Source: a candidate division WOR-3 bacterium
GTDB lineage: Bacteria > SDB-A
Assembly: GCA_016926475.1 (NCBI GenBank)
Contig: JAFGON010000086.1
Coordinates: 1-23,272, forward strand
Length of the DNA: 23,272 nt
Direction: 5' to 3'
The translations under genes were made by a program, and so were the position numbers. Shown in pieces: positions 12,847-23,272 of this stretch. The stretch's first letter is position 1. The number at the start of each line of letters is the position of its first letter. The notes below the pieces were generated by a model. It did not search any database and was not told the DNA's origin. It was given only the letters and a program-made list of their open reading frames with translations.

Positions 12847-12875
12847 TTGACAGCAGTATAATCAGATGTTATGAT
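12847..12875 (+). promoter_or_regulatory. Near-consensus sigma70-type promoter
   Basis: TTGACA (12847-12852) is a perfect -35, and TATGAT (12870-12875, 5 of 6) follows after exactly 17 bases. Transcription would start near 12882, giving a leader of about 195 bases before the GNAT gene at 13077. Confidence 0.55.
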
Positions 12876-13076: not shown

Positions 13077-13517
13077 ATGACGGAAATAAATATATACGAT
13101 CCGAAAAACAAACCAGATAAAGGTCAAAAACAAAAAATTGTCGATTTTCTGTATGAAAACCTGGAAAAATTTGGAGATCCGAAACCCGCAATTGAAAAAG
13201 CCGTGGATTACGCCTTGAAAAACATCGAATCTTTCGGAGGTTTTGTCCTCTCGTATAATTCAGGAGAGAATATTTTTGGCGCGGTTGTCGTCAACAGGAC
13301 AGGGATGAAAGACTACATTCCTGAAAACATTCTCGTATACATCGCGACCAAAAAAGAAGAAAGAGGAAAAGGAATCGGCAAGAAACTGATGAAAAAAACA
13401 ATTGAAATAGCCGAAGGCAGTATCAAGCTACATGTCGAACCTGATAACCCAGCTAGGTTTTTGTATGAAGGATTTGGCTTTACGAACAAATACCTCGAGA
13501 TGAGATTGACAAAATAA
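13077..13517 (+). CDS. GNAT-family N-acetyltransferase
   Basis: An intact 146-residue protein from ATG 13077, preceded by AAAGGAG. The core strand ILVYIATKKEE leads into the acetyl-CoA loop RGKGIGKKLMKK (about 98-109), and the C-terminal NPARFLYEGFGF is the usual substrate-side motif. The N-terminal ~45 residues are helical (KIVDFLYENLEKFGDPKPAI). The racemase gene begins 3 bases after its stop, so the two are almost certainly co-transcribed, which suggests an amino acid or amino acid derivative as acetyl acceptor. This is an inference from context only. Confidence 0.88.
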   Translation: MTEINIYDPKNKPDKGQKQKIVDFLYENLEKFGDPKPAIEKAVDYALKNIESFGGFVLSYNSGENIFGAVVVNRTGMKDYIPENILVYIATKKEERGKGIGKKLMKKTIEIAEGSIKLHVEPDNPARFLYEGFGFTNKYLEMRLTK

Positions 13518-13520
13518 AAC

Positions 13521-14591
13521 ATGGCAAAAATCACTTTAGACCGAACAAAGCTCAGAGAGAATTACAGCTTTCTGTATAAACTGTTCAAAAAACAAGGCAT
13601 ACAATGGGCGGTTGTGACAAAACTACTCTGCGGAAACAGGGATTTTCTCGAAGAAGTATTAAAATTAGAGCCTTTCCAAACCTGCGACTCGAGACTATCG
13701 AGCCTGAAGACGATAAAGAGCATAAATCCAAAAATAGAGACAATATACATAAAGCCGCCTCCGCAAAAATCGATCCAAAATGTTGTAAAATACGCGGATA
13801 TAAGCCTTAACACAGAATTGAAAACAGTCGAAATGCTTTCAGAAGAAGCGGTCAGACAGAAAAAAAAGCATAAAATCATTATTATGATAGAGATGGGAGA
13901 GTTGAGAGAAGGTGTTATGAGAGACAGGCTGATAGATTTTTATGAGAGGATTTTCAGATTGCCTAATATAGAAGTCACTGGGGTTGGGACAAATCTCGCC
14001 TGCCTGAATGGAGTCCTTCCAAACCACGATAAATTGATACAGCTCAGTCTTTATAAACAGCTCATAGAGGCGAAGTTTGGTAAAAAAATTCCCCTTGTCT
14101 CGGGGGGGTCTTCGGTGACTATTCCCCTGATATTCAAAAACCTTTTGCCAAAGGGCATAAACCATTTCAGGGTAGGAGAAACACTTTTCATCGGAACAGA
14201 TGTATACAATGATGAAAAGATGAATGGTCTTAACACCGACATATTCAAGCTTCACTGTGAGATAATCGAGTTAAAGAAAAAACCGAGTGTGCCGACAGGT
14301 GAAATGGGGACAAATCTTGAAGGACACACACCTTGTTTCGATGAAAACGAGAAAAGTCGGGATTCTTTCAGGGCGATAATAGACGTGGGCATTCTCGATG
14401 TGGAGATAAACCATATTTTTCCCGTTGATACTAATTATTCAATAATAGGCGCGAGTTCAGATATGTTCGTGATAGACATCAAAGACAATCCGAAAAATCT
14501 TAAAACCGGCGACTATCTTCAATTCTACCTGGACTACCTCGGAGTATTAAGGGTTATGAATTCGAAATTCATTGAAAAGAAAATTGAATAA
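13521..14591 (+). CDS. PLP-dependent alanine/ornithine racemase-family protein
   Basis: A 356-residue fold-type III PLP enzyme. The N-terminal barrel starts MAKITLDRTKLRENY, and the Schiff-base lysine is Lys34 in WAVVTKLLCGN (29-39). IEVTGVGTNLACLNG (150-164), the phosphate-binding VSGGSSVTIPL (193-203) and NHFRVGETLFIG (214-225) follow. The C-terminal domain includes AIIDVGILDVE and GASSDMFVIDI. This pattern is that of the ornithine/alanine racemase branch (for example Clostridium ornithine racemase), not the canonical Alr of cell-wall synthesis. The ornithine aminomutase genes that accompany ornithine racemase in clostridia are absent here. The substrate may be another amino acid. The gene is tightly coupled to the upstream GNAT gene. 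Confidence 0.87.
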   Translation: MAKITLDRTKLRENYSFLYKLFKKQGIQWAVVTKLLCGNRDFLEEVLKLEPFQTCDSRLSSLKTIKSINPKIETIYIKPPPQKSIQNVVKYADISLNTELKTVEMLSEEAVRQKKKHKIIIMIEMGELREGVMRDRLIDFYERIFRLPNIEVTGVGTNLACLNGVLPNHDKLIQLSLYKQLIEAKFGKKIPLVSGGSSVTIPLIFKNLLPKGINHFRVGETLFIGTDVYNDEKMNGLNTDIFKLHCEIIELKKKPSVPTGEMGTNLEGHTPCFDENEKSRDSFRAIIDVGILDVEINHIFPVDTNYSIIGASSDMFVIDIKDNPKNLKTGDYLQFYLDYLGVLRVMNSKFIEKKIE

Positions 14592-14600
14592 AAAATATTT

Positions 14601-14629
14601 TTGTAATAATCCTGTTCTGAAAATATAAT
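14601..14629 (+). promoter_or_regulatory. Promoter of the mannoside/GH130 operon
   Basis: TTGTAA (14601-14606, 4 of 6) and a perfect TATAAT (14624-14629) are separated by exactly 17 bases. The predicted start near 14636 leaves a very short leader holding the AGAGGGA ribosome-binding site before ATG 14649. Confidence 0.55.
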
Positions 14630-14648
14630 TACCTGAAAGAGGGATCCA

Positions 14649-16919
14649 ATGGAAAGAGTTAGATCTGTAGCCGTAATAGGAAATTACCTGCCCAGAATGT
14701 GCGGCATCGCAACATTTACGACCGATTTGGTCAGCGCATTGTCATCCAAGGGGATTGACTGCTGGGCGATCGCGATGAACGACAGACCGGAAGGATACAG
14801 ATACCCAAAGGAAGTCCGATTCGAAATAAACCAGAACAAATCAAGCGAATATGTTCTCGCCTCGGATTACCTGAACATAAGCCAGATTGACGCTGTTTCG
14901 CTTCAGCATGAATACGGGATTTTCGGGGGGGAATACGGCTCTTACATCGTATCTCTGATAAAGAGGCTGAGGATGCCCGTCGTGACGACACTTCACACAG
15001 TTCTAAAAGAGCCTGTTTCAACACAGAAAAAAATTCTCTCTGATATCGCGCGTTTTTCGGAGAAAATAATTGTCATGTCCGAAAACGCCAGCGATTTTCT
15101 CAAAGAAATATACGGTGTCCCGAAAGACAAGATTGTTTTGATCCATCACGGAATTCCCGACATGCCTTTTGTAGATCCGAATTATTACAAAGACCAATTC
15201 GGCGTCGAGGGCAGAAAAGTTATTTTGACATTCGGTTTACTATCTCCCAACAAGGGAATCGAATACATGATAGATGCCATGCCGAAAATAATGGAAAAAC
15301 ATGCCGATGTCGTTTATGTAATCGTTGGAGCGACTCATCCTAACATAAAAAAGACGCATGGAGAAGAATACAGACAAAGCCTTGTAAGAAGGGCAAAAGC
15401 CGCGGGAGTTGACCAGAACATAATGTTTTTTAACCGGTTCGTTGAGAGAAATGAACTGTGCGAATTTTTGGGGGCATGCGACGTGTACGTAACCCCGTAT
15501 TTATCCGAAGCTCAAATAGTCTCTGGAACCCTCGCTTACGCGATGGGTGTAGGCAAAGCGACGGTTTCGACTCCTTACTGGTACGCTGTCGAGATGATGT
15601 CCGAAGACAGGGGAGTTTTGGTAGGGTTTCGGGATTCCGAAGCCCTTGCTGAAGCCGTTTCCGGACTGCTCAGCGACGACATCAAGAGAAACGCCATGAG
15701 AAAACGAGCCTACACTTTTCTAAGAAGGGCCGTGTGGAGCCAGGTGGCTGTTGATTATTTAGCGATTTTAAACGGGGTTAAAAATGAGAGAATAGAAAAT
15801 GCGAAAGTTATTTTCAGCACCAAAACCCTCGCGCAGGACAAAACGAGCCTTCCTGAAATCGATTTCAGGCACGTGATGCTGATGACCGACGACACGGGGA
15901 TACTTCAGCACGCCACGTATTCCATTCCTGACTACGACCATGGTTATTGTGCCGACGACAACTCAAGAGGTTTGATAGCCTCCGTGATGGCTCAGAGTTT
16001 TACGCCTGAAGATCCGAAAATGCTGAACATGCAGAAAAAATTTCTCGCTTTTCTTAAACATTCTTTCAACGATAAAACGGGTTGGTTCAGAAATTTTATG
16101 TCTTTCGAAAGAAAATGGCTTGAAGAGAAGGGCTCTGAAGACAGTCAGGGAAGGGCAATATGGGGACTGGGAGTCTGCGCGGCTCTTTCCGGTGACAAAA
16201 GCTGTGTCGCCCTCAGCACGACCCTTTTTCACAGAGCAGTAGAGGTAATGTTGAAACTATCCCACCCCAGGGCAGTCTCTTTCGCTCTTGTTGGAATACA
16301 CGCCTATCTCGCGAGGTTTTCTGGAGACAGCGAAATAAGAAGGGCGAGGGAGAAACTCGCCAATTATCTTTTTGAAAAGTTTAAAAAAAGACCCGACATG
16401 AATTGGCCTTGGTTCGACGACGAACTTTTTTACGCCAACGCGAAAATTCCTCAGGCTCTATTGCTCTCGGGGCAGTGGATGCAGAGAACAGATATGTCGA
16501 ATATGGGTTTTGATCTCCTAAACTGGGTGATAGAATTACAGAGCGAAAAAAACTATTTTTCTCCCATTGGGAACAGGGGCTGGCTGAGAAAAGGAGGGAG
16601 TAAGGCAAATTTCGACCAGCAGCCAATAGAAGCTCAGGCTATGATCGAGACATGTCTTCTGGCGTACAATATGACTGGTGACGACAAATACAGCAACATG
16701 GCTCATCTTGCTTTTAACTGGTTTCTCGGACAAAATATTCTCAATGAGCCTCTTTACGATTTCGCTACAGGGGGATGCCGGGACGGACTCACCCCCGACG
16801 GTCCAAATATGAACCAGGGAGCAGAGTCGACTCTCGCCTGGCTTTTGTCCCTTCTGGCGATGCACGGTTTTAGCGCAGAACAGAACAAGATGCAATACAC
16901 GGTTCCAATAGCTGAGTAA
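14649..16919 (+). CDS. GT4 glycosyltransferase fused to a C-terminal alpha/alpha-toroid-like domain
   Basis: A 756-residue cytosolic protein. Residues 1-370 are a GT-B glycosyltransferase of family GT4: PRMCGIATFTTDL near the N-terminus, LQHEYGIFGGEYG (85-97), TLHTV, the donor-side FGLLSPNKGIEYMIDA (195-210), and EAQIVSGTLAYAMGVGKATV (287-306), a family variant of the usual E-x7-E motif. Residues about 385-750 form a separate helical domain with DDNSRGLIA, QGRAIWGLG, DMNWPWFDDELFYANAKIPQ and FDQQPIEAQAMIE, resembling the alpha/alpha toroids of glycan-processing enzymes. I know this fusion from gene neighbourhoods with GH130 phosphorylases, as here. It probably elongates a mannose-containing glycan from a nucleotide sugar, likely GDP-mannose (inference). 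It is the first gene of the operon. Confidence 0.88.
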   Translation: MERVRSVAVIGNYLPRMCGIATFTTDLVSALSSKGIDCWAIAMNDRPEGYRYPKEVRFEINQNKSSEYVLASDYLNISQIDAVSLQHEYGIFGGEYGSYIVSLIKRLRMPVVTTLHTVLKEPVSTQKKILSDIARFSEKIIVMSENASDFLKEIYGVPKDKIVLIHHGIPDMPFVDPNYYKDQFGVEGRKVILTFGLLSPNKGIEYMIDAMPKIMEKHADVVYVIVGATHPNIKKTHGEEYRQSLVRRAKAAGVDQNIMFFNRFVERNELCEFLGACDVYVTPYLSEAQIVSGTLAYAMGVGKATVSTPYWYAVEMMSEDRGVLVGFRDSEALAEAVSGLLSDDIKRNAMRKRAYTFLRRAVWSQVAVDYLAILNGVKNERIENAKVIFSTKTLAQDKTSLPEIDFRHVMLMTDDTGILQHATYSIPDYDHGYCADDNSRGLIASVMAQSFTPEDPKMLNMQKKFLAFLKHSFNDKTGWFRNFMSFERKWLEEKGSEDSQGRAIWGLGVCAALSGDKSCVALSTTLFHRAVEVMLKLSHPRAVSFALVGIHAYLARFSGDSEIRRAREKLANYLFEKFKKRPDMNWPWFDDELFYANAKIPQALLLSGQWMQRTDMSNMGFDLLNWVIELQSEKNYFSPIGNRGWLRKGGSKANFDQQPIEAQAMIETCLLAYNMTGDDKYSNMAHLAFNWFLGQNILNEPLYDFATGGCRDGLTPDGPNMNQGAESTLAWLLSLLAMHGFSAEQNKMQYTVPIAE

Positions 16920-16923
16920 AGAT

Positions 16924-18384
16924 TTGAAAAAAATCTTAGTTGAAAGAAAAGGATTGATACTTCAACCTTCCCACGAGAGAGTGTTGATAAGACCTTTTAT
17001 TCCTGAAAATTCGGCAAGAAGAGAAAAAATAATCAGCAGAGTGATGAATCTATCTGAAAAAAGCACTTCTGAATTGCTCAAACAAATAATAGATGAATTT
17101 AAAACAAGGCACCAAGACATAAAAAGCGTCTTCAGAAAGAATTATGAAAATGTCCGAAGGTGGACGATAACCGACATGCCTCTCTCCGAAGACAGAGAAC
17201 TTCTTATAGGGGCGTATTTCACGCAGGAATACTCGCTGGAATCCGCGGCTCTCTTCAACCCCTCGATTGTTCCGCATCCAAACCAAAAAAACCTTGCCAA
17301 AGGAAGCTTGAGATTTATACTGAGCTTGAGGGCGACAGGGGAAGGTCATATTTCTTCAATAGTTTTCAGAGAGGGTGTTATAACCGAAAATTCTGAAATA
17401 ACAATAAAAGACCCTACTCCTTTTGTCGATGAACCGGAGAGAATTCCTAATCAAATATACGAGAAAAATCTTTTTTCAAGAAAACTGGTTGAGTTGAATT
17501 TTTACAACGATTTCAGCAAAAACGTACTCTCTCAGTTGCCTGAAAATTTCACAATTTCGGAGCTTGATGAGAAGATTGAAAAAGCAAAGCACGGATTTCA
17601 AAGGTCGGGGGGAGACATAGAACTCACCGCCAGAAATCTTCTCGTTTTGGCCTATTCAAACTACGAGGTCACATTCGAAAAGGATCAAAAAACATCCGAA
17701 AAGGCAATTTTCCCGTTTTCACCGAGCCACAGCAACGGAATAGAAGACGCGCGGTTTGTAATGTTTTCCGAAGAGGACAATAATAATCTTTATTACGCGA
17801 CATACACGGCTTTTGACGGAAAGACAATCCTCCCTCAACTCATAGAGACGGAAGATTTTGTTTCTTTCAAGTTCATTACATTGAACGGACCCGCGGCTAA
17901 AAACAAAGGACTTGCGCTTTTCCCAAAGAAAATAAACGGTCTTTATGCGATGCTCTCACGGCAGGACAACGAGAACCTTTTCCTGATGTATTCGGACAAC
18001 ATCCATTTTTGGTACGATCCGAAGATTTTAATGAAACCGACTTACTCCTGGGAATTTGTCCAGCTTGGAAATTGCGGGTCTCCAATTGAGACCGATCAGG
18101 GTTGGATCGTTCTTAGCCATGGCGTTGGTCCGATGAGAAAATACTGCATAGGAGCTTTTTTGCTGGACAAGGAAAATCCGGAAAAGGTCATTGGAAGGCT
18201 TAAATATCCTTTGTTAGAGCCCGGCGAAAACGAGAGGGAGGGATACGTTCCTAACGTAGTCTATACCTGCGGAGCGCTCATCCACAGAGAAAATTTAATC
18301 ATACCGTACGCCATGTCGGATTACGCCACAGGCTTTGCGGTAGTCGAAGTCGAAAATCTCGTAAAAGCAATGACATCCGGCTGA
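16924..18384 (+). CDS. GH130-family beta-mannoside phosphorylase, long form (candidate beta-1,2-oligomannan phosphorylase)
   Basis: A 486-residue protein starting at TTG 16924, 4 bases after the previous stop, without a clear Shine-Dalgarno. An N-terminal helical extension (about 1-240) precedes the five-bladed propeller. Diagnostic GH130 motifs are SHSNGIEDARFV (269-279; Asp275 is the expected general acid), ALFPKKINGLYAMLSRQDNE, NIHFW, GNCGSPIETDQGWIVLSHGV and EREGYVPNVVYTCGA. GH130 phosphorylases reversibly cleave terminal beta-mannosides with phosphate to mannose 1-phosphate. The long form resembles the beta-1,2-oligomannan phosphorylase described from Thermoanaerobacter, which is likewise paired with a shorter GH130. 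No signal peptide is visible, so it acts in the cytosol. Linkage specificity is an inference. Confidence 0.88.
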   Translation: MKKILVERKGLILQPSHERVLIRPFIPENSARREKIISRVMNLSEKSTSELLKQIIDEFKTRHQDIKSVFRKNYENVRRWTITDMPLSEDRELLIGAYFTQEYSLESAALFNPSIVPHPNQKNLAKGSLRFILSLRATGEGHISSIVFREGVITENSEITIKDPTPFVDEPERIPNQIYEKNLFSRKLVELNFYNDFSKNVLSQLPENFTISELDEKIEKAKHGFQRSGGDIELTARNLLVLAYSNYEVTFEKDQKTSEKAIFPFSPSHSNGIEDARFVMFSEEDNNNLYYATYTAFDGKTILPQLIETEDFVSFKFITLNGPAAKNKGLALFPKKINGLYAMLSRQDNENLFLMYSDNIHFWYDPKILMKPTYSWEFVQLGNCGSPIETDQGWIVLSHGVGPMRKYCIGAFLLDKENPEKVIGRLKYPLLEPGENEREGYVPNVVYTCGALIHRENLIIPYAMSDYATGFAVVEVENLVKAMTSG

Positions 18385-19433
18385 TGAAAGTCGCTGTACT
18401 CGCCCCGATAGCTTGGAGAACACCTCCCCGTCATTACGGACCTTGGGAAAGGTTTTGCTCTCTGTTGACGGAAGAGCTCGTTTGTCTCGGATTGGATGTC
18501 ACTTTGTTTGCCACGGGTGATTCAGTCACAAAAGCTAAACTTGAATGGGTTTGCCCGAGGGGATACGAAGAGGACAAAAGCATGGATGCCAAGGTCTGGG
18601 AGAGTATTCACATATCAAACTGCTTTGAAAAGGCTTCCGGTTTTGACTTAATACACAACAATTTCGACTTTTTGCCACTTACATATTCTAACCTCGTCAA
18701 GACGCCTGTTTTGACGACGATTCACGGATTTTCCTCGGATAAAATCTTAAGGGTATATGAAAAATATGACAGAACTAATTACTATGTCTCCATAAGCGAT
18801 TCCGACAGATCCCCTCTTCTTCATTACGAGAAGACGATTCACCACGGAATAGACCTGGAAAATTTCACATTCAGAGAAAAACCCGGAGGTGACTATCTGC
18901 TTTATTTCGGCAGGTTCCACCGTGACAAAGGCGCCAGAGAGGCAATTGAGATATCCAAAACAACAGGTAAAAAACTGCTTATGGCGGGTATAGTCCAGGA
19001 CAGAAACTATTTTGACGAGTTCGTCAGACCTTTTATCGCAGAAGGTAAAATAGAATTTCTGGGAAGCGTCGGGCCCGAACAGAGGGACAAATTGCTCGGC
19101 AATGCATTGGCGCTTCTTCATCCTATAAATTTCGACGAACCGTTCGGCTTTTCAGTGGTCGAAGCCATGGCTTGCGGAACACCAGTGATAGCGTTTAACA
19201 GGGGCAGTATGCCTGAAATAATTGAAGACGGCAGAACTGGTTTTCTTGTCTGTAATACAAAAGAAGCTTCTGATTCGGTGTTTAGGCTCGGTAGCATAAA
19301 AAGAGTTGAATGCAGGAAAGCAGCAGAGAAAAGGTTTTCACGCAGAAAAATGGCAGTTGAATACGTAGATGTCTATAAAAGAATATTTCTAAAGGGAAAG
19401 ACCGATGAAAAGACAGACAATCAAAAGATTTGA
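18384..19433 (+). CDS. GT4-family glycosyltransferase
   Basis: A 349-residue GT-B enzyme whose ATG overlaps the previous TGA (ATGA at 18383-18386), a sign of translational coupling. It starts MKVAVLAPIAWRTPPRHYGP WERF, where the glycine-containing loop is the acceptor-side nucleotide-sugar loop. IHNNFDFLPL, TTIHGF, HHGIDLENF and LLYFGRFHRDKGAREAIEI (about 172-190) follow. The catalytic E-x7-E motif is complete in EPFGFSVVEAMACGTPVIAF (Glu252 and Glu260). Relatives transfer mannose or glucose from nucleotide sugars with retention. Set between two GH130 genes, it is probably the priming or branching partner of the toroid-fused transferase. Donor and acceptor are not determined by sequence. Confidence 0.9.
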   Translation: MKVAVLAPIAWRTPPRHYGPWERFCSLLTEELVCLGLDVTLFATGDSVTKAKLEWVCPRGYEEDKSMDAKVWESIHISNCFEKASGFDLIHNNFDFLPLTYSNLVKTPVLTTIHGFSSDKILRVYEKYDRTNYYVSISDSDRSPLLHYEKTIHHGIDLENFTFREKPGGDYLLYFGRFHRDKGAREAIEISKTTGKKLLMAGIVQDRNYFDEFVRPFIAEGKIEFLGSVGPEQRDKLLGNALALLHPINFDEPFGFSVVEAMACGTPVIAFNRGSMPEIIEDGRTGFLVCNTKEASDSVFRLGSIKRVECRKAAEKRFSRRKMAVEYVDVYKRIFLKGKTDEKTDNQKI

Positions 19434-20343
19434 CGGCAACCCCATACTGACGAAAAAAGACGTTCCCTACGAGGTCGAAACCGTTCACAACGCGGGTGTA
19501 GTGAAGAGAAGAGATAAATACATCATGCTCTTCCGGTCACACAGAAGAAACGGCAGGTCAATCATAGGGATAGCCGACAGCTTGGACGGTTACCATTTCA
19601 CGGTCAGGGAAAAACCTTTTATCGTCCCGGCTGTTGATGGCGTATTCGCAGAATACGAAGAATACGGAGTTGAGGACTGCAGGATAACCGAAATAGAAGG
19701 TGAATTCATCTTAACATACAGCGCTTATTCCAGGCACGGAGTCCGTGTAGTCCTCGCTAAGACCAGGGATTTCATTTCTCTTGAAAGGGTTTCCCTTATA
19801 ACTCAGTCCGACTGCAGAAATGTGGTCGTGTTTCCTGAAAAATTCGGCAAAAAATTCGCGAGGCTTGACAGGCCACATTCAGAAATATCTCCGTGGTCAA
19901 TTTGGATTTCTTATTCTCCCGACCTTGTCCACTGGGGAGATTCAAAAGTCGTTATGAAACCTGGGCGTTACAGATGGGATGAACTGAAAATCGGACCCGG
20001 AGCGCCGCCTATTAAAACCAAACGCGGATGGCTGAGTATTTATCACGGCGTTTTCAAGACAATGGACGGAGCTATATACAGACTCGGTGCGGCACTGCAC
20101 GACGCCGCGGATCCGTCCAAAATATTGGGCGTGTCTGATGACTGGATTTTACAGCCCGAGGATCCTTGGGAGATGACGGGTTATGTCCACAACGTAGTCT
20201 TCACTTGCGGGGCTGTCCCCGAAGAAGACGGATCGCTCAAAATATACTGGGGAGGCGCGGACACAGTCATGTGCGCGGGAGAGGCGGCGATAGAAGAAAT
20301 CGTCGAAATGTGCCTTGAGAACCCGAGGAAAATGGACGATTGA
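19405..20343 (+). CDS. GH130-family beta-mannoside phosphorylase, short form
   Basis: A 312-residue compact five-bladed beta-propeller. Its ATG lies 29 bases inside the preceding GT4 gene, so the two are coupled. Family motifs are NPILTKKDVPY, VHNAGVVKRRDKYIMLFR (27-44), YEEYGVEDCRIT (84-94, with Asp91 the expected general acid), WISYSPDLVHWG, KIGPGAPPIKTKRGWLSIYH and GYVHNVVFTCGAV. Short GH130 enzymes include beta-1,2-mannobiose, beta-1,4-mannooligosaccharide and mannosyl-glucose phosphorylases. Pairing with a long GH130 makes the mannobiose type attractive. The usual VPNVVF is VHNVVF here (His for Pro). It is cytosolic and releases mannose 1-phosphate. Confidence 0.9.
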   Translation: MKRQTIKRFDGNPILTKKDVPYEVETVHNAGVVKRRDKYIMLFRSHRRNGRSIIGIADSLDGYHFTVREKPFIVPAVDGVFAEYEEYGVEDCRITEIEGEFILTYSAYSRHGVRVVLAKTRDFISLERVSLITQSDCRNVVVFPEKFGKKFARLDRPHSEISPWSIWISYSPDLVHWGDSKVVMKPGRYRWDELKIGPGAPPIKTKRGWLSIYHGVFKTMDGAIYRLGAALHDAADPSKILGVSDDWILQPEDPWEMTGYVHNVVFTCGAVPEEDGSLKIYWGGADTVMCAGEAAIEEIVEMCLENPRKMDD

Positions 20344-20909
20344 CCTTTCAAAAGAAACCATTGAAATGCTATTGTTTTAATAACTTCACCGTTATAGGAA
20401 AAGTTAATATTTTCTGGAACATGTCCTCTTATAAACCCAAAATAACAAGAATACAATTGCCGGGTACGAAAAATAGTACAAATTTGGAATGCGAAGAAAA
20501 CACCTGTAAGGAAATTGACGATCTAGGTTGCAAGATGCAGGTACTCCTCAAGGGATCGGACGTAAGTTTTGACCAGACCTTGCTCGACATGAGCAGGTGT
20601 TCGGAATTTCAGAAGAAAGTTCTTGCCATAGAAAGCTTGACTCCGAGAGGTTTTGTGACTACATACGGCTGTTTAGCCAGAAAAATCGGCTTGCCCAGAA
20701 GTGCCAGAGCAGTCGGCAACGCGCTTAAAAACAATCCTTTTCCAATTGTCATTCCATGCCACAGAACAGTCATGTCCGACGGGTCTGTGGGCGGCTACCA
20801 GGGAGGAAAGAAAATGAAAAGAAGGCTTATCGAAATGGAAGGGGTGGATTTCGATCTCAAAAACAGAGTTGTCCTCAAAAATTTCATGTATGACATCACA
20901 AGTAATTGA
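20340..20909 (+). CDS. Methylated-DNA--protein-cysteine S-methyltransferase (Ogt/MGMT type)
   Basis: A 189-residue DNA-repair protein. From TTG 20340, which overlaps the GH130 stop, or possibly TTG 20361, it reads KCYCFNNFTVIGKVNIFW, matching the usual N-terminal strand pattern; no ATG start fits better. The alkyl-transfer domain is complete: FQKKVLAIESLTPRGFVTTY (90-109), the recognition helix ARAVGNALKNNPFPIVIPCH (122-141) and the active-site Cys140 in PCHR, then GSVGGYQGG. It removes O6-alkyl groups from guanine in a single-use reaction. The central segment (about 45-85) is poorly conserved. Its linkage to a glycan operon appears functionally unrelated. Confidence 0.88.
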   Translation: MTFQKKPLKCYCFNNFTVIGKVNIFWNMSSYKPKITRIQLPGTKNSTNLECEENTCKEIDDLGCKMQVLLKGSDVSFDQTLLDMSRCSEFQKKVLAIESLTPRGFVTTYGCLARKIGLPRSARAVGNALKNNPFPIVIPCHRTVMSDGSVGGYQGGKKMKRRLIEMEGVDFDLKNRVVLKNFMYDITSN

Positions 20910-21693
20910 AAACATCACGGAAGACGACGAAAAAGCGCTCGGACTCATGCAGCCCAGTGAATGGGGCGACATCGTGCCTTTGTTCAAGTTCTACGCTTCG
21001 AAAGAATTCTGCCGGCCTCTGGCAATTAGGGAAAATTCACAGATTGTAGGTGTAGGCACGGCGATATTCTTCGAAAAGACGGCCTGGCTCGCGCATATCA
21101 TTGTCCGAGAGGACAAAAGAAACAAAGGGTTTGGGAAAAAAATACTCGACGATCTTCTTGAAACGACATTTGGTTGCGAGAGCGTCTCTCTCATCGCCAC
21201 GGAGCTGGGTCTTCCTCTTTATGAAAAAGCAGGATTTCGTGAAGTTACGGAATATGTTGTTTTGGAATCCGAAAAAGCGACAGGACATACGGATTCAGCC
21301 CCCTACGTAAGGCGGTTGTCGCGGGATGACATAAAAGGCGTTCTCGCATTGGACGAAAAAATATCCGGTGAAAAAAGAAGCGAGCTTCTTTTGGAGAAAC
21401 TCTGCGGAGGGATTGTGCATAAACCAGAAAATCATCTCAGGGGATATTTTCTTCCCGGCCTTGGAGAGGGATTGATATTTGCTGAGGACGATGAAGCCGG
21501 AGAGCACCTTATGAAATACAGGATGTCTGTTGAAAAAAAGGCGGTTCTTCCCCGAGACAACGTCAAGGGTATTGATTGTCTCGCCAGCTACGGGTTTTCC
21601 AAGAAGAAAAGAGTTAAAAGAATGATCTACGGAAAGGAATTTCCGTGGCACCCGGAAATGGTCTGGAACAGAATAGGAGGAAACTTCGGATGA
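20890..21693 (+). CDS. GNAT-family acetyltransferase with C-terminal YitH-like domain
   Basis: A 267-residue protein. ATG 20890 overlaps the end of the alkyltransferase gene; an upstream in-frame TTG 20869 is also possible, and neither has a strong Shine-Dalgarno. The N-terminal GNAT core shows WLAHIIVREDKRNKGFGKKI (about 64-83) with the acetyl-CoA loop, and PLYEKAGFREVTEYVVLE. Residues from about 135 form a second domain (YVRRLSRDDIKGVLALDEKI, then a C-terminal YGFSKKKRVKRMIYGKEF), like the YitH/Acetyltransf_18-type tail seen in two-domain GNAT proteins. It is cytosolic and its substrate is unknown. Its stop overlaps the next start. Confidence 0.8.
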   Translation: MTSQVIENITEDDEKALGLMQPSEWGDIVPLFKFYASKEFCRPLAIRENSQIVGVGTAIFFEKTAWLAHIIVREDKRNKGFGKKILDDLLETTFGCESVSLIATELGLPLYEKAGFREVTEYVVLESEKATGHTDSAPYVRRLSRDDIKGVLALDEKISGEKRSELLLEKLCGGIVHKPENHLRGYFLPGLGEGLIFAEDDEAGEHLMKYRMSVEKKAVLPRDNVKGIDCLASYGFSKKKRVKRMIYGKEFPWHPEMVWNRIGGNFG

Positions 21694-22340
21694 GAGACGG
21701 CATAAATATTGTTCTACCCCACTCGTTAGAAAGCAGAAGAGTTGAATTTGAGAATTATTTGGACAAAGCCTGCAAAAGATTGAGTGTTTTTGCTGAGCGT
21801 CATGGATGGGAAAGACATGTAAAAATTCCTTTTATGAAGGAAGTCAGAATTTTTGATGACAAAAAGATTTTCAATTCTCAACTATTGACTTTATCGGGTA
21901 TGGAGACAGAAATTGAACTGCCGGACACGTATTGCGCGGCTCTTGAAAAAGAGATTCTGATTGCGGTTACACCGGAATATTACGCCGAAGCTTACCCCGA
22001 AGGTGTTGAAGAAGCGGGTTATGAAAAACTTTTAACTCATGAGATGGCGCACAGACTGCACATAAGAATATTAAACGGAGACGAAGATGCGATGGGTCCT
22101 GTCTGGTTTTTTGAAGGTTTTGCGATCTTTGCCGCCCAACAGCTTAAAGATGACTCTATGGTTTTGTCGAAAGACGACATAAAAAATATCGTCGAAAATC
22201 CCCAAAGAGGCAGTTACAAGTATTATTCTCGCGTAATGGAGGTTTTTTTGAAAAAATGCCCACTCCGAGAACTTGTTTTCAGGGCGGGTGAACCTGGTTT
22301 CAACAGGTGGGTTAAAGATAATCTAATCAGCCAGTTATAA
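21690..22340 (+). CDS. Soluble gluzincin-type metallopeptidase (peptidase MA-like)
   Basis: A 216-residue protein. ATG 21690 overlaps the previous TGA (ATGA) and has AGGAGG about 10 bases upstream. The zinc site is LLTHEMAHRLHIRI (114-127; His117, Glu118 and His121), with the third ligand expected at Glu142 in PVWFFEGFAIFAAQQ (137-151), the HExxH...E arrangement of gluzincins. The C-terminal part (YYSRVMEVFLKK, RAGEPGFNRW) matches the helical tail of peptidase MA-like proteins. It has no signal peptide or membrane segment, unlike many relatives, so it appears cytosolic. Its role next to a GNAT gene is unknown. It is the last gene of the plus-strand run. Confidence 0.82.
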   Translation: MRDGINIVLPHSLESRRVEFENYLDKACKRLSVFAERHGWERHVKIPFMKEVRIFDDKKIFNSQLLTLSGMETEIELPDTYCAALEKEILIAVTPEYYAEAYPEGVEEAGYEKLLTHEMAHRLHIRILNGDEDAMGPVWFFEGFAIFAAQQLKDDSMVLSKDDIKNIVENPQRGSYKYYSRVMEVFLKKCPLRELVFRAGEPGFNRWVKDNLISQL

Positions 22341-22375: not shown

Positions 22376-22404
22376 AAAAAGGGCTGTCGTTGATTTGACA
22401 GCCC
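22376..22404 (-). terminator. Intrinsic terminator of the minus-strand secreted protein gene
   Basis: Read on the minus strand, GGGCTGTC and GACAGCCC form a perfect 8-bp GC-rich stem with an 8-base loop, followed at once by TTTTT. It starts 16 bases after the minus-strand stop codon. On the plus strand there is no T-run after the stem, so it is directional. Confidence 0.8.
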
Positions 22405-22420: not shown

Positions 22421-23272
22421 TTATCTGATTATAAGCGCTTTTTCTGTGATTTCTATATCGCCTGAGTTTATCCTGACGAATAGAACTCCTTCGGAGGAGG
22501 GGGTTATGCTTATCGTGTTTTGTCCAGATAGGTTCTGATAGTTGTAGTCCCCGACCATTCTTCCGGTCGCGTCGAAAACTTTAACGCTCATGTCCTGTCC
22601 GGCGGTGAAACTGTATTTTATCGTAATGTCCCTCGAATTGCCGAGGACGGAAACAGTGCCGACTGATGTCGAGATTGCCGGTTCCTCGACTGAATTAGGC
22701 TGGACAACGACGGTTTTGACTGTGTTTGAATAATTTCCCCAGCCCCTTGTGTTGTGACCTCTGACTCGGAAATAATTTTCGCCGAGGGGTAGGGTCGAAG
22801 GCGTGTATGAAGTGTCGTATATGACGCTGTCGAGAACTTCAATCTGGCTGAAGCTGGCCACAGGCGATATGTCGTCAACATAAAAATTATCATGGAGGGT
22901 GTTGTCGTCGGTTATTGTCCTGAACCTGAAATAGACGGCTTTCCCCTCCCATTGACTTAAAGAATATTTCTTTTGTGTCCATGTCTGTTGGCTGCCGGAG
23001 TATCTCGTGTCGAGCTGAATCCATTCTCTCTCGTCTTCTGAGACTTCGACTATAGTTACGTCGTAGTCGTTTTCTGAGTAATTCCAAAACCAGAAGGAAA
23101 ATGTGTCGTTGGGCTGGACGATGTATGGGTATTTGGTCTGGGCGGTGTTTGCGATGTTGTCCTGTGAACCTGAATAAAGGCTGTAAGTCCCCGCGTGCTT
23201 TTTCGATGTGCTCTGCGTGAAGCCTGTAAGGATCCAGTTTGAAGTTCCGGACTCTATCCCGTCCGCGGAATA
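22421..23272 (-). CDS. C-terminal part of a secreted modular protein with sorting-domain-like C-terminus (5' end outside window)
   Basis: The minus-strand frame is open from the right edge to TAA at 22421-22423, 283 residues without a stop. The visible N-terminal part (about 140 residues) is a jelly-roll, MAM/'choice-of-anchor J'-like domain: DGIESGTSNWILTGFTQS, SFWFWNYSENDYDVTIVEVS, WEGKAVYFRFR and NFYVDDI, as in immune-inhibitor-A-type peptidases. A fibronectin-III-like stretch (LPLGENYFRVRGHNTRGWGN) and a final 'type A sorting'-like module follow: ITIKYSF, VKVFDATGRMVGDYNY, EGVLFVRINSG and the KALIIR end. Such tails direct export or surface attachment in FCB-type bacteria. The catalytic or binding N-terminus and signal peptide lie beyond the window, so the function is unknown. 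Confidence 0.82.
   Translation of the reverse strand, partial: YSADGIESGTSNWILTGFTQSTSKKHAGTYSLYSGSQDNIANTAQTKYPYIVQPNDTFSFWFWNYSENDYDVTIVEVSEDEREWIQLDTRYSGSQQTWTQKKYSLSQWEGKAVYFRFRTITDDNTLHDNFYVDDISPVASFSQIEVLDSVIYDTSYTPSTLPLGENYFRVRGHNTRGWGNYSNTVKTVVVQPNSVEEPAISTSVGTVSVLGNSRDITIKYSFTAGQDMSVKVFDATGRMVGDYNYQNLSGQNTISITPSSEGVLFVRINSGDIEITEKALIIR

What the first reader, a model, noticed from the sequence alone, without database searches (positions are those of the whole stretch)
14649..20343. GT4-toroid, long GH130, GT4, short GH130: a self-contained cytosolic mannoside synthesis and phosphorolysis module
Two glycosyltransferases alternate with two different GH130 phosphorylases behind one promoter, with a 4-base gap, a 1-base overlap and a 29-base overlap between genes. 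No signal peptide, transporter or secreted glycosidase accompanies them. Glycosyltransferases would build a mannoside from nucleotide sugar, and phosphorylases would release mannose 1-phosphate without ATP. The long/short GH130 pairing resembles the beta-1,2-oligomannan and beta-1,2-mannobiose phosphorylase pair known from Thermoanaerobacter. An intracellular mannose reserve, analogous to the beta-1,2-mannan reserve of Leishmania that also uses GH130 enzymes, is a testable reading.
Basis: partly seen in the sequence, partly recalled or inferred. Interest (0 to 1): 0.65.

Follow-up and report, generated by a model that had tools for sequence, protein, structure and literature searches.

The report
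Widespread bacterial mannoside-cycling gene cassette
Four neighbouring genes, found in the same grouping in bacteria from many phyla, most likely build and take apart a mannose-containing sugar inside the cell, but I found no report identifying that sugar, so its role (energy reserve or stress protectant) is open and directly testable.

Summary
The four genes are real and spaced as described. They are not peculiar to this genome. All three sampled species of the genus carry them in this order, as do several Acidobacteriota; the same four in other orders occur in Desulfobacterota, Spirochaetota and on an Ilyobacter plasmid. The core is the pair GT4-toroid + long GH130 (70 of 80 best relatives; in 119 genomes of one phylum 13/13 with the long GH130 also have GT4-toroid). 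No transporter or secreted enzyme recurs beside it. The long GH130 models as a beta-1,2-mannoside phosphorylase (Z 37 to Thermoanaerobacter enzymes) with the beta-1,2 Lys and phosphate-site residues invariant. The short GH130 keeps the phosphate site but has Arg for that Lys and forms its own clade, so a Thermoanaerobacter-like pair is only half supported. The GT side needs revision: GT4 enzymes make alpha bonds, GH130 handles beta-mannosides; GT4-toroid has lost the canonical Arg and E-x7-E; [quoted passage not shown] Best reading: an intracellular alpha/beta-mixed mannoside cycle turning over alpha-mannose-1-phosphate, more likely a stress solute or small reserve than a pure mannan store. 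Function is untested.

The parts
14649..16919 (+). GT4-toroid gene (756 aa): N-terminal GT-B glycosyltransferase plus C-terminal (alpha/alpha)6 toroid
   Evidence: 40-61% identity across phyla
14649..15791 (+). GT-B domain (residues 1-381), GT4-like; Leu197 where PimA/MshA have the phosphate-binding Arg, Lys202 kept, E287-x7-Leu295 instead of E-x7-E
   Evidence: VIA-align Z 35-37 to SPS, MshA, PimA; HMMER alignments; Leu197 and Leu295 invariant in 42/42, Glu287 in 34/42
15837..16877 (+). toroid domain (residues 397-743); no Pfam family; related in sequence to YPO2471 (7tem), in fold to cellobiose 2-epimerases; invariant acids D414, D436, D437, E661, D712, E726
   Evidence: Z 38.1 to 7tem and 30-31 to cellobiose 2-epimerases; hmmsearch E 3.2e-14 to 7tem; for Pfam; for conservation
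16924..18384 (+). long GH130 gene (486 aa): five-bladed propeller with helical N-terminal addition and helical insert
   Evidence: mean pLDDT 92.6; Z 37.0, 33% identity to beta-1,2-mannobiose phosphorylase
17464..17658 (+). helical insert of the long GH130 (residues 181-245), absent in alphaproteobacterial homologues
   Evidence: secondary structure; alignment A1
17743..17748 (+). catalytic-site Glu274-Asp275 of the long GH130
   Evidence: invariant in 48/48; aligned with the Glu-Asp of Teth514_1788
17905..17907 (+). Lys328 (NKG motif) of the long GH130: position of the beta-1,2 specificity Lys
   Evidence: 48/48 Lys; aligned to NKD of beta-1,2 enzymes; rule from PMC4599007
18384..19433 (+). 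short GT4 gene (349 aa), canonical E-x7-E (E252, E260), R177/K182, Y18
   Evidence: 41% identity to TeGSS over 333 residues
19405..20343 (+). short GH130 gene (312 aa); Glu90-Asp91, Arg138 (not Lys), Arg156, His214 invariant in 13/13
   Evidence: own clade, support 100/100
14601..14629 (+). promoter-like match before the cassette (TTGTAA-17-TATAAT), not above chance
12847..12875 (+). best promoter-like match (TTGACA-17-TATGAT), upstream of the acetyltransferase-racemase pair that precedes the cassette
22381..22404 (+). terminator-like stem-loop after the last co-directional gene

Best explanation
A conserved, horizontally mobile cytosolic cassette that builds and recycles a soluble oligosaccharide containing both alpha-linked sugars and beta-linked mannose. 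Shown by sequence, structure prediction and genome comparison: the four genes and their cross-phylum grouping; the phosphorylase-type active sites of both GH130s; the beta-1,2-type active site of the long one; the canonical retaining donor site of the short GT4; the atypical donor site of GT4-toroid. Inferred: the short GT4 adds an alpha-linked hexose (glucose or mannose) from a nucleotide sugar; GT4-toroid binds or makes the acceptor chain, with its toroid shaping or trimming it; the GH130s add beta-mannose from alpha-mannose-1-phosphate when it is plentiful and release alpha-mannose-1-phosphate by phosphorolysis when it is needed, the long one on beta-1,2 bonds and the short one on a different bond or acceptor. 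The freed mannose-1-phosphate goes to GDP-mannose or glycolysis. The product most likely serves as a stress-protective solute or small carbohydrate reserve; which of the two is not decided.
For: All four genes together in several phyla and on a plasmid; GT4-toroid beside 70 of 80 best long-GH130 relatives; in 119 genomes of one phylum long GH130 in 13, GT4-toroid in 24 including all 13 (P about 3e-11 ignoring relatedness), short GH130 orthologue in 3, all within the 13. Of 8 loci read in genomes with GT4-toroid but no long GH130, 7 have another short GH130 beside it. No other recurrent cross-phylum neighbour, hence no importer or exporter. Fold and residues of the long GH130. In 9 of 13 alphaproteobacterial plasmid loci a mannose-metabolism gene is near: class I mannose-6-phosphate isomerase in 6, mannose-1-phosphate guanylyltransferase, phosphomannomutase or AGE epimerase in others. 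Chaperone or stress genes near in 4 of 13. The short GT4 resembles a glucosylsucrose synthase whose product is a salt- and heat-stress solute (PMC9909042). A guanylyltransferase homologue exists in the own genome.
Against: No substrate, product or expression evidence. In 5 of 13 alphaproteobacterial plasmid loci the long GH130 has no annotated GT4-toroid beside it and two of the 80 best relatives lack it with ample flank (L078, L094), so the pair is not obligate. The donor site of GT4-toroid lacks two canonical residues and may not use a nucleotide sugar. Neither class I PMI nor the bifunctional PGI/PMI family was found in the own genome, so how mannose-6-phosphate arises is unclear. No strict EcfG stress-promoter match lies directly upstream of the cassette in the alphaproteobacterial plasmids.
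Confidence: 0.45

Rival explanations
1. Mannogen-like store: the cassette makes a beta-1,2-mannan homopolymer as energy reserve and mobilises it by phosphorolysis, the two GH130s splitting chain-length tasks like Teth514_1788/1789, or the long GH130 acting like the dual-activity GT108 enzymes of Leishmania.
For: Long GH130 fold and beta-1,2 Lys; intracellular setting without transporter; GT108 enzymes are found by fold (Z 21.5-22.6).
Against: Retaining GT4s do not make beta bonds; the short GH130 has Arg instead of Lys and sits outside the Teth514 clade; the GT108 match is far weaker than GH130 (22.6 against 37); the genome already has glycogen synthase and an alpha-glucan phosphorylase.
Confidence: 0.18
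2. Salvage only: the GH130s degrade beta-mannosides from outside or from turnover, and the GT4s are unrelated passengers or glycosylate something else.
For: Characterised GH130s often act in catabolic gene clusters (PMC4264767, PMC4599007); these GH130s keep phosphorolytic sites; some alphaproteobacterial long GH130s lack an adjacent GT4-toroid.
Against: GT4-toroid co-occurs with the long GH130 in 13/13 genomes of the sampled phylum and lies in the same locus in 70/80; no importer or endo-enzyme recurs nearby.
Confidence: 0.15
3. Envelope or protein glycan: the GT4s assemble a cytosolic precursor of a surface or protein-linked glycan and the GH130s edit it.
For: GT4-toroid resembles PimA/PimB' and MshA in fold; Sphingomonas and Rhizobium carriers make complex surface glycans (general knowledge).
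Against: No flippase, polymerase, polyprenyl-phosphate transferase or exporter recurs beside the cassette.
Confidence: 0.12

Closest known systems
Teth514_1788 / Teth514_1789 (1,2-beta-oligomannan and beta-1,2-mannobiose phosphorylases, Thermoanaerobacter; PMC4264767)
   Same: Long GH130: same fold (Z 36.8-37.0), 32-33% identity, Lys in the NK motif, Glu-Asp pair, Arg and His conserved. A GT4 gene and a mannose-1-phosphate guanylyltransferase lie in that cluster too.
   Different: The Teth cluster has an ABC importer and a GH5 gene; the two Teth enzymes group together apart from the window proteins; the long GH130 has two helical additions; the short GH130 has Arg in place of the Lys.
TeGSS, tll1591 glucosylsucrose synthase (GT4 alpha-1,2-glucosyltransferase; PMC9909042)
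   Same: Short GT4: 41% identity over the whole length; Tyr18, Arg179, Lys184 and both Glu of E-x7-E conserved.
   Different: Sucrose-contacting Trp10 is not at the same position; genes beside it are GH130s, not sucrose-phosphate synthase; donor and acceptor unknown.
YPO2471 (PDB 7tem, 'putative exported protein') and the cellobiose 2-epimerase / AGE fold
   Same: Toroid domain: sequence relation to 7tem (E 3.2e-14), fold Z 38.1; cellobiose 2-epimerases Z 30-31.
   Different: Fused to a GT-B domain and without sign of export; the conserved polar residues are mostly acids, with only H408 and H421 as conserved His, both at the domain's start.
Leishmania mannogen enzymes (GT108, MTP1-4; Sernee 2019 as reviewed in PMC8950772)
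   Same: Beta-mannoside turnover by a five-bladed propeller enzyme with no importer; possible dual synthesis and phosphorolysis.
   Different: Structural match much weaker (Z 21.5-22.6, 11-14% identity); no GT4-toroid partner is described in what I read.

Membership tests
GH130 phosphorylases (long GH130) | five-bladed propeller and PF04041 above cut-off | tested here: met
   107 bits against 26; AlphaFold2 model pLDDT 92.6, Z 37 to GH130
GH130 phosphorylases (long GH130) | catalytic Asp and basic phosphate-site residues (hydrolases carry acids there) | tested here: met
   D275, K328, R346, H399 invariant 48/48, aligned with Teth514_1788; rule in PMC4599007; which residues bind phosphate was taken by alignment, not by superposition
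GH130 phosphorylases (short GH130) | catalytic Asp and basic phosphate-site residues | tested here: met
   D91, R138, R156, H214 invariant 13/13
GH130 phosphorylases | phosphorolysis of a beta-mannoside to alpha-mannose-1-phosphate | not testable with these tools
   needs enzyme assay
beta-1,2-mannoside-specific GH130 (Teth514_1788/1789, Lin0857) | Lys at the +1 subsite (long GH130) | tested here: met
   K328 48/48, aligned to the NKD Lys of 9fj8, 7fip and Uhgb_MS
beta-1,2-mannoside-specific GH130 (Teth514_1788/1789, Lin0857) | Lys at the +1 subsite (short GH130) | tested here: not met
   R138 13/13, as in the beta-1,4 enzymes' NRN motif
beta-1,2-mannoside-specific GH130 (Teth514_1788/1789, Lin0857) | groups with characterised beta-1,2 enzymes in a tree | tested here: inconclusive
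   long GH130 on the beta-1,2 side at 94/89, on a long branch; short GH130 on the other side
GH130_1 / GH130_2 (beta-1,4) | Tyr-Asp at the catalytic pair | tested here: not met
   both window GH130s have Glu-Asp
GT4 (short GT4) | GT-B Pfam domains, Arg/Lys pair and E-x7-E | tested here: met
GT4 (GT4-toroid) | GT-B fold and Glycos_transf_1/Glyco_transf_4 above cut-off | tested here: met
GT4 (GT4-toroid) | canonical Arg and E-x7-E donor site | tested here: not met
   Leu197 and Leu295 invariant
AGE / cellobiose 2-epimerase | (alpha/alpha)6 barrel | tested here: met
   Z 30-31
AGE / cellobiose 2-epimerase | catalytic His residues | tested here: inconclusive
   no conserved His in the middle or C-terminal part of the toroid, but residues were not superposed
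Leishmania GT108 mannogen system | GT108 sequence family / closest fold | tested here: inconclusive
   GT108 chains listed at Z 21.5-22.6, well below GH130 at 31-37; no GT108 family model was run
Leishmania GT108 mannogen system | beta-1,2-mannan product in the cytosol | not testable with these tools
   needs cells or enzymes

The most novel reading that the evidence does not exclude
Bacteria from about ten phyla share an undescribed intracellular glycan cycle: a GT-B/toroid fusion with an unusual donor site and a GH130 phosphorylase together make and remobilise a beta-mannose-containing oligosaccharide that serves as a stress solute or reserve, a bacterial counterpart to mannogen.
Probability: 0.3. 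Interest if true: 0.7.

Novelty: new variant of a known kind. Interest (0 to 1): 0.5.

Why it matters
The families are known, but I found no paper describing the GT4-toroid/GH130 pair or its product, although it spans Acidobacteriota, Verrucomicrobiota, Planctomycetota, Bacteroidota, Spirochaetota, Desulfobacterota, Fusobacteriota, Cyanobacteria and Alphaproteobacteria. Identifying the product would name a soluble glycan that many environmental bacteria may carry, assign function to an unnamed toroid domain and to a GH130 subgroup with its own architecture, and test whether phosphorolytic turnover of an internal mannoside exists outside Leishmania. Cultured carriers (Spirosoma, Sphingobium, Ilyobacter) make this testable.

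Tried and rejected
EcfG (general stress) promoter motif upstream of the alphaproteobacterial cassettes: the strict pattern gave three matches, none directly upstream of the cassette genes. The adjacent 'Glycosyltransferase' and 'Glycosidases' genes in the Sphingomonas melonis EcfG regulon (PMC6599016) could not be equated with this pair; 'Glycosidases' may equally mean a GH13 enzyme. Prior description of the module: searches for GH130 with GT4/gene cluster, mannogen, GT108, PH1107, mannosylglucosylglycerate and mannoside synthase found none; most subscription papers and all preprints are outside the library. Considered and rejected: a beta-1,4-mannan utilisation locus (no Tyr-Asp, no importer, no endo-mannanase) and chance adjacency (cross-phylum recurrence). 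In the tree only aligned parts of seven reference enzymes were available; no hydrolase or GH130_1 reference could be included. The toroid's catalytic role could not be resolved: no Pfam family matches it and I did not superpose residues.
Full report
What is there. Four co-directional genes occupy 14649-20343: a 756-residue protein with an N-terminal GT-B glycosyltransferase and a C-terminal toroid ('GT4-toroid'), a 486-residue GH130 ('long'), a 349-residue GT4 ('short GT4') and a 312-residue GH130 ('short GH130'). Pfam supports all family assignments with wide margins. The window is the whole contig C86 of a 2.15 Mb genome, and these are its only two GH130 genes.

Conservation within the genus. 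Both other sampled species of the genus carry the four genes in the same order and on the same strand, flanked by the same genes: upstream an acetyltransferase and an ornithine-racemase-like PLP enzyme, downstream an O6-methylguanine methyltransferase, another acetyltransferase and an HExxH protein. These flanking genes were not found beside the cassette outside the genus, so I treat them as local context and not part of the cassette. 'One promoter' is not shown: the region has no more promoter-like matches than chance, and the unit may begin upstream near 12847 and end at the terminator-like stem at 22381.

Conservation beyond the genus. A tblastn search of plasmids found the long GH130 in Sphingomonads, Rhizobiales and Ilyobacter polytropus. 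The Ilyobacter plasmid pILYOP02 carries all four genes in the order GT4, short GH130, long GH130, GT4-toroid, with 63%, 68%, about 50% and 45% identity. Of these 80, 70 have GT4-toroid in the same locus, 52 of them within 200 bases; 11 also have both short genes. The window's order is found in Acidobacteriota (L033, L055, L056, L059); GT4-toroid, short GT4, short GH130, long GH130 in Desulfobacterota and Spirochaetota (L086, L096, L105, and L071, L102 truncated); and a divergent arrangement in L064. Clustering all neighbours, the cassette genes are the only families that recur broadly across phyla. In a sample of 119 genomes of the phylum of L033, the long GH130 is in 13, GT4-toroid in 24 including all 13, and the short GH130 orthologue in 3, all within the 13. 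Of the eight GT4-toroid loci I read in genomes lacking the long GH130, seven have a different short GH130 directly beside GT4-toroid; these group together in the tree. GT4-toroid thus usually has a GH130 beside it, though the pairing is not absolute: five of 13 alphaproteobacterial plasmid loci have the long GH130 without an annotated adjacent GT4-toroid, as do two of the 80 loci with ample flank (L078, L094).

Long GH130. The AlphaFold2 model has mean pLDDT 92.6. It is a GH130 propeller with a helical N-terminal addition and a helical insert (residues 181-245) that alphaproteobacterial homologues lack. The nearest solved structures are beta-1,2-mannobiose phosphorylase of Thermoanaerobacter (Z 37.0, 1.8 A over 283 residues, 33% identity), the Listeria enzyme and Teth514_1788; beta-1,4 enzymes and hydrolases follow at 31-34 and Leishmania GT108 at 21.5-22.6. 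Rows within Z of 1 are tied, so the statement is that the beta-1,2 enzymes as a set rank first. Residues: Glu274-Asp275, Lys328, Arg346, His399 and Asp466 are invariant in 48 sequences. Cuskin et al. (PMC4599007) report that beta-1,2 specificity goes with a Lys absent from beta-1,4 enzymes and that hydrolases lack the phosphate-binding bases of phosphorylases. By the aligned motifs the long GH130 has the beta-1,2 Lys and the phosphorylase pattern; that this Lys is the one they name is my inference from the alignments.

Short GH130. It keeps Asp91, Arg156 and His214 but has Arg138 where beta-1,2 enzymes have Lys, and Glu90-Asp91 where beta-1,4 enzymes have Tyr-Asp: a mixture of the two known patterns, invariant in 13 sequences. 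In the tree it is a clade of its own (100/100), on the beta-1,4 side with moderate support (94/89); the long GH130 is a clade of its own (100/100) on the beta-1,2 side (94/89). Neither lies inside a characterised clade, and the pair is not the Teth514_1788/1789 pair.

The glycosyltransferases. The short GT4 is 41% identical over its length to TeGSS, a UDP-glucose:sucrose alpha-1,2-glucosyltransferase (PMC9909042), and keeps its Tyr18, Arg179, Lys184 and E-x7-E equivalents, but not Trp10, which contacts sucrose. GT4-toroid's N-terminal domain has the GT-B fold (Z 35-37 to sucrose-phosphate synthase, MshA and PimA), but the Arg of the donor site seen in PimA and MshA is Leu in 42 of 42 sequences, and the second Glu of E-x7-E is Leu in 42 of 42. 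Its C-terminal toroid has the fold of cellobiose 2-epimerases (Z 30-31) and is related in sequence to YPO2471; no Pfam family matches it convincingly. The two domains' mutual placement is uncertain (pTM 0.54).

Mechanism. GT4 enzymes retain configuration, so they make alpha bonds from nucleotide sugars; GH130 phosphorylases act on beta-mannosides with inversion (general knowledge; PMC8950772). A GT4 product therefore cannot itself be the bond that GH130 cleaves. The simplest model consistent with the recurrent grouping is a glycan with both bond types: GT4s lay down or prime an alpha-linked part, and GH130s add or remove beta-mannose using alpha-mannose-1-phosphate. The mannose part is backed by context: 9 of 13 alphaproteobacterial loci have mannose-6-phosphate isomerase, mannose-1-phosphate guanylyltransferase, phosphomannomutase or an AGE epimerase close by (no background rate was computed). 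The lack of transporters argues for an internal product. For the role, chaperone and stress genes lie near in 4 of 13 of these loci and TeGSS makes a stress solute; against a reserve, the window's genome also has glycogen synthase and an alpha-glucan phosphorylase. None of this is decisive.

Verdict. The reading as a beta-1,2-mannan reserve is partly supported (long GH130, intracellular setting) and partly not (short GH130, alpha-forming GTs, odd donor site). I rate it a new variant of a known kind with moderate interest.

Noticed in passing
window 13077-22340: Nine co-directional genes (acetyltransferase, ornithine-racemase-like enzyme, the four cassette genes, O6-methylguanine methyltransferase, acetyltransferase, HExxH protein) keep the same order in all three species of the genus; the flanking five were not found beside the cassette elsewhere.
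   Followed up: partly
L110, L112, L113, L114, L115, L116, L117 (genomes of the phylum of L033): GT4-toroid without the long GH130 is directly beside a different short GH130 clade, often with a 4-base overlap; L114 also has a short-GT4 homologue.
   Followed up: partly
GT4-toroid residues 397-743 (window 15837-16877): A toroid domain family without a Pfam model, related to the solved but unnamed YPO2471 protein of Yersinia; invariant acids suggest an active site.
   Followed up: partly
L022, L025, L127, L128 (Sphingomonad plasmids): The long GH130 sits in plasmid regions with GroESL, Hsp20, DnaK, ClpB, DegP, Dps, universal stress proteins or pentose-phosphate genes.
   Followed up: no
L023, L124 (Rhizobium plasmids): An AGE-family epimerase gene follows GT4-toroid and the long GH130, the same fold as the toroid fused to GT4.
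   Followed up: no
window 22421-22861 (minus strand): C-terminal part of a secreted protein; congeners show a zinc carboxypeptidase-like protein with a C-terminal sorting-type domain here (L027 5350-7539, L028 12544-14790).
   Followed up: no
L082, L088: The pair also appears in contigs labelled as archaeal MAGs (Methanomassiliicoccaceae, Thermoplasmata); binning errors were not excluded.
   Followed up: no
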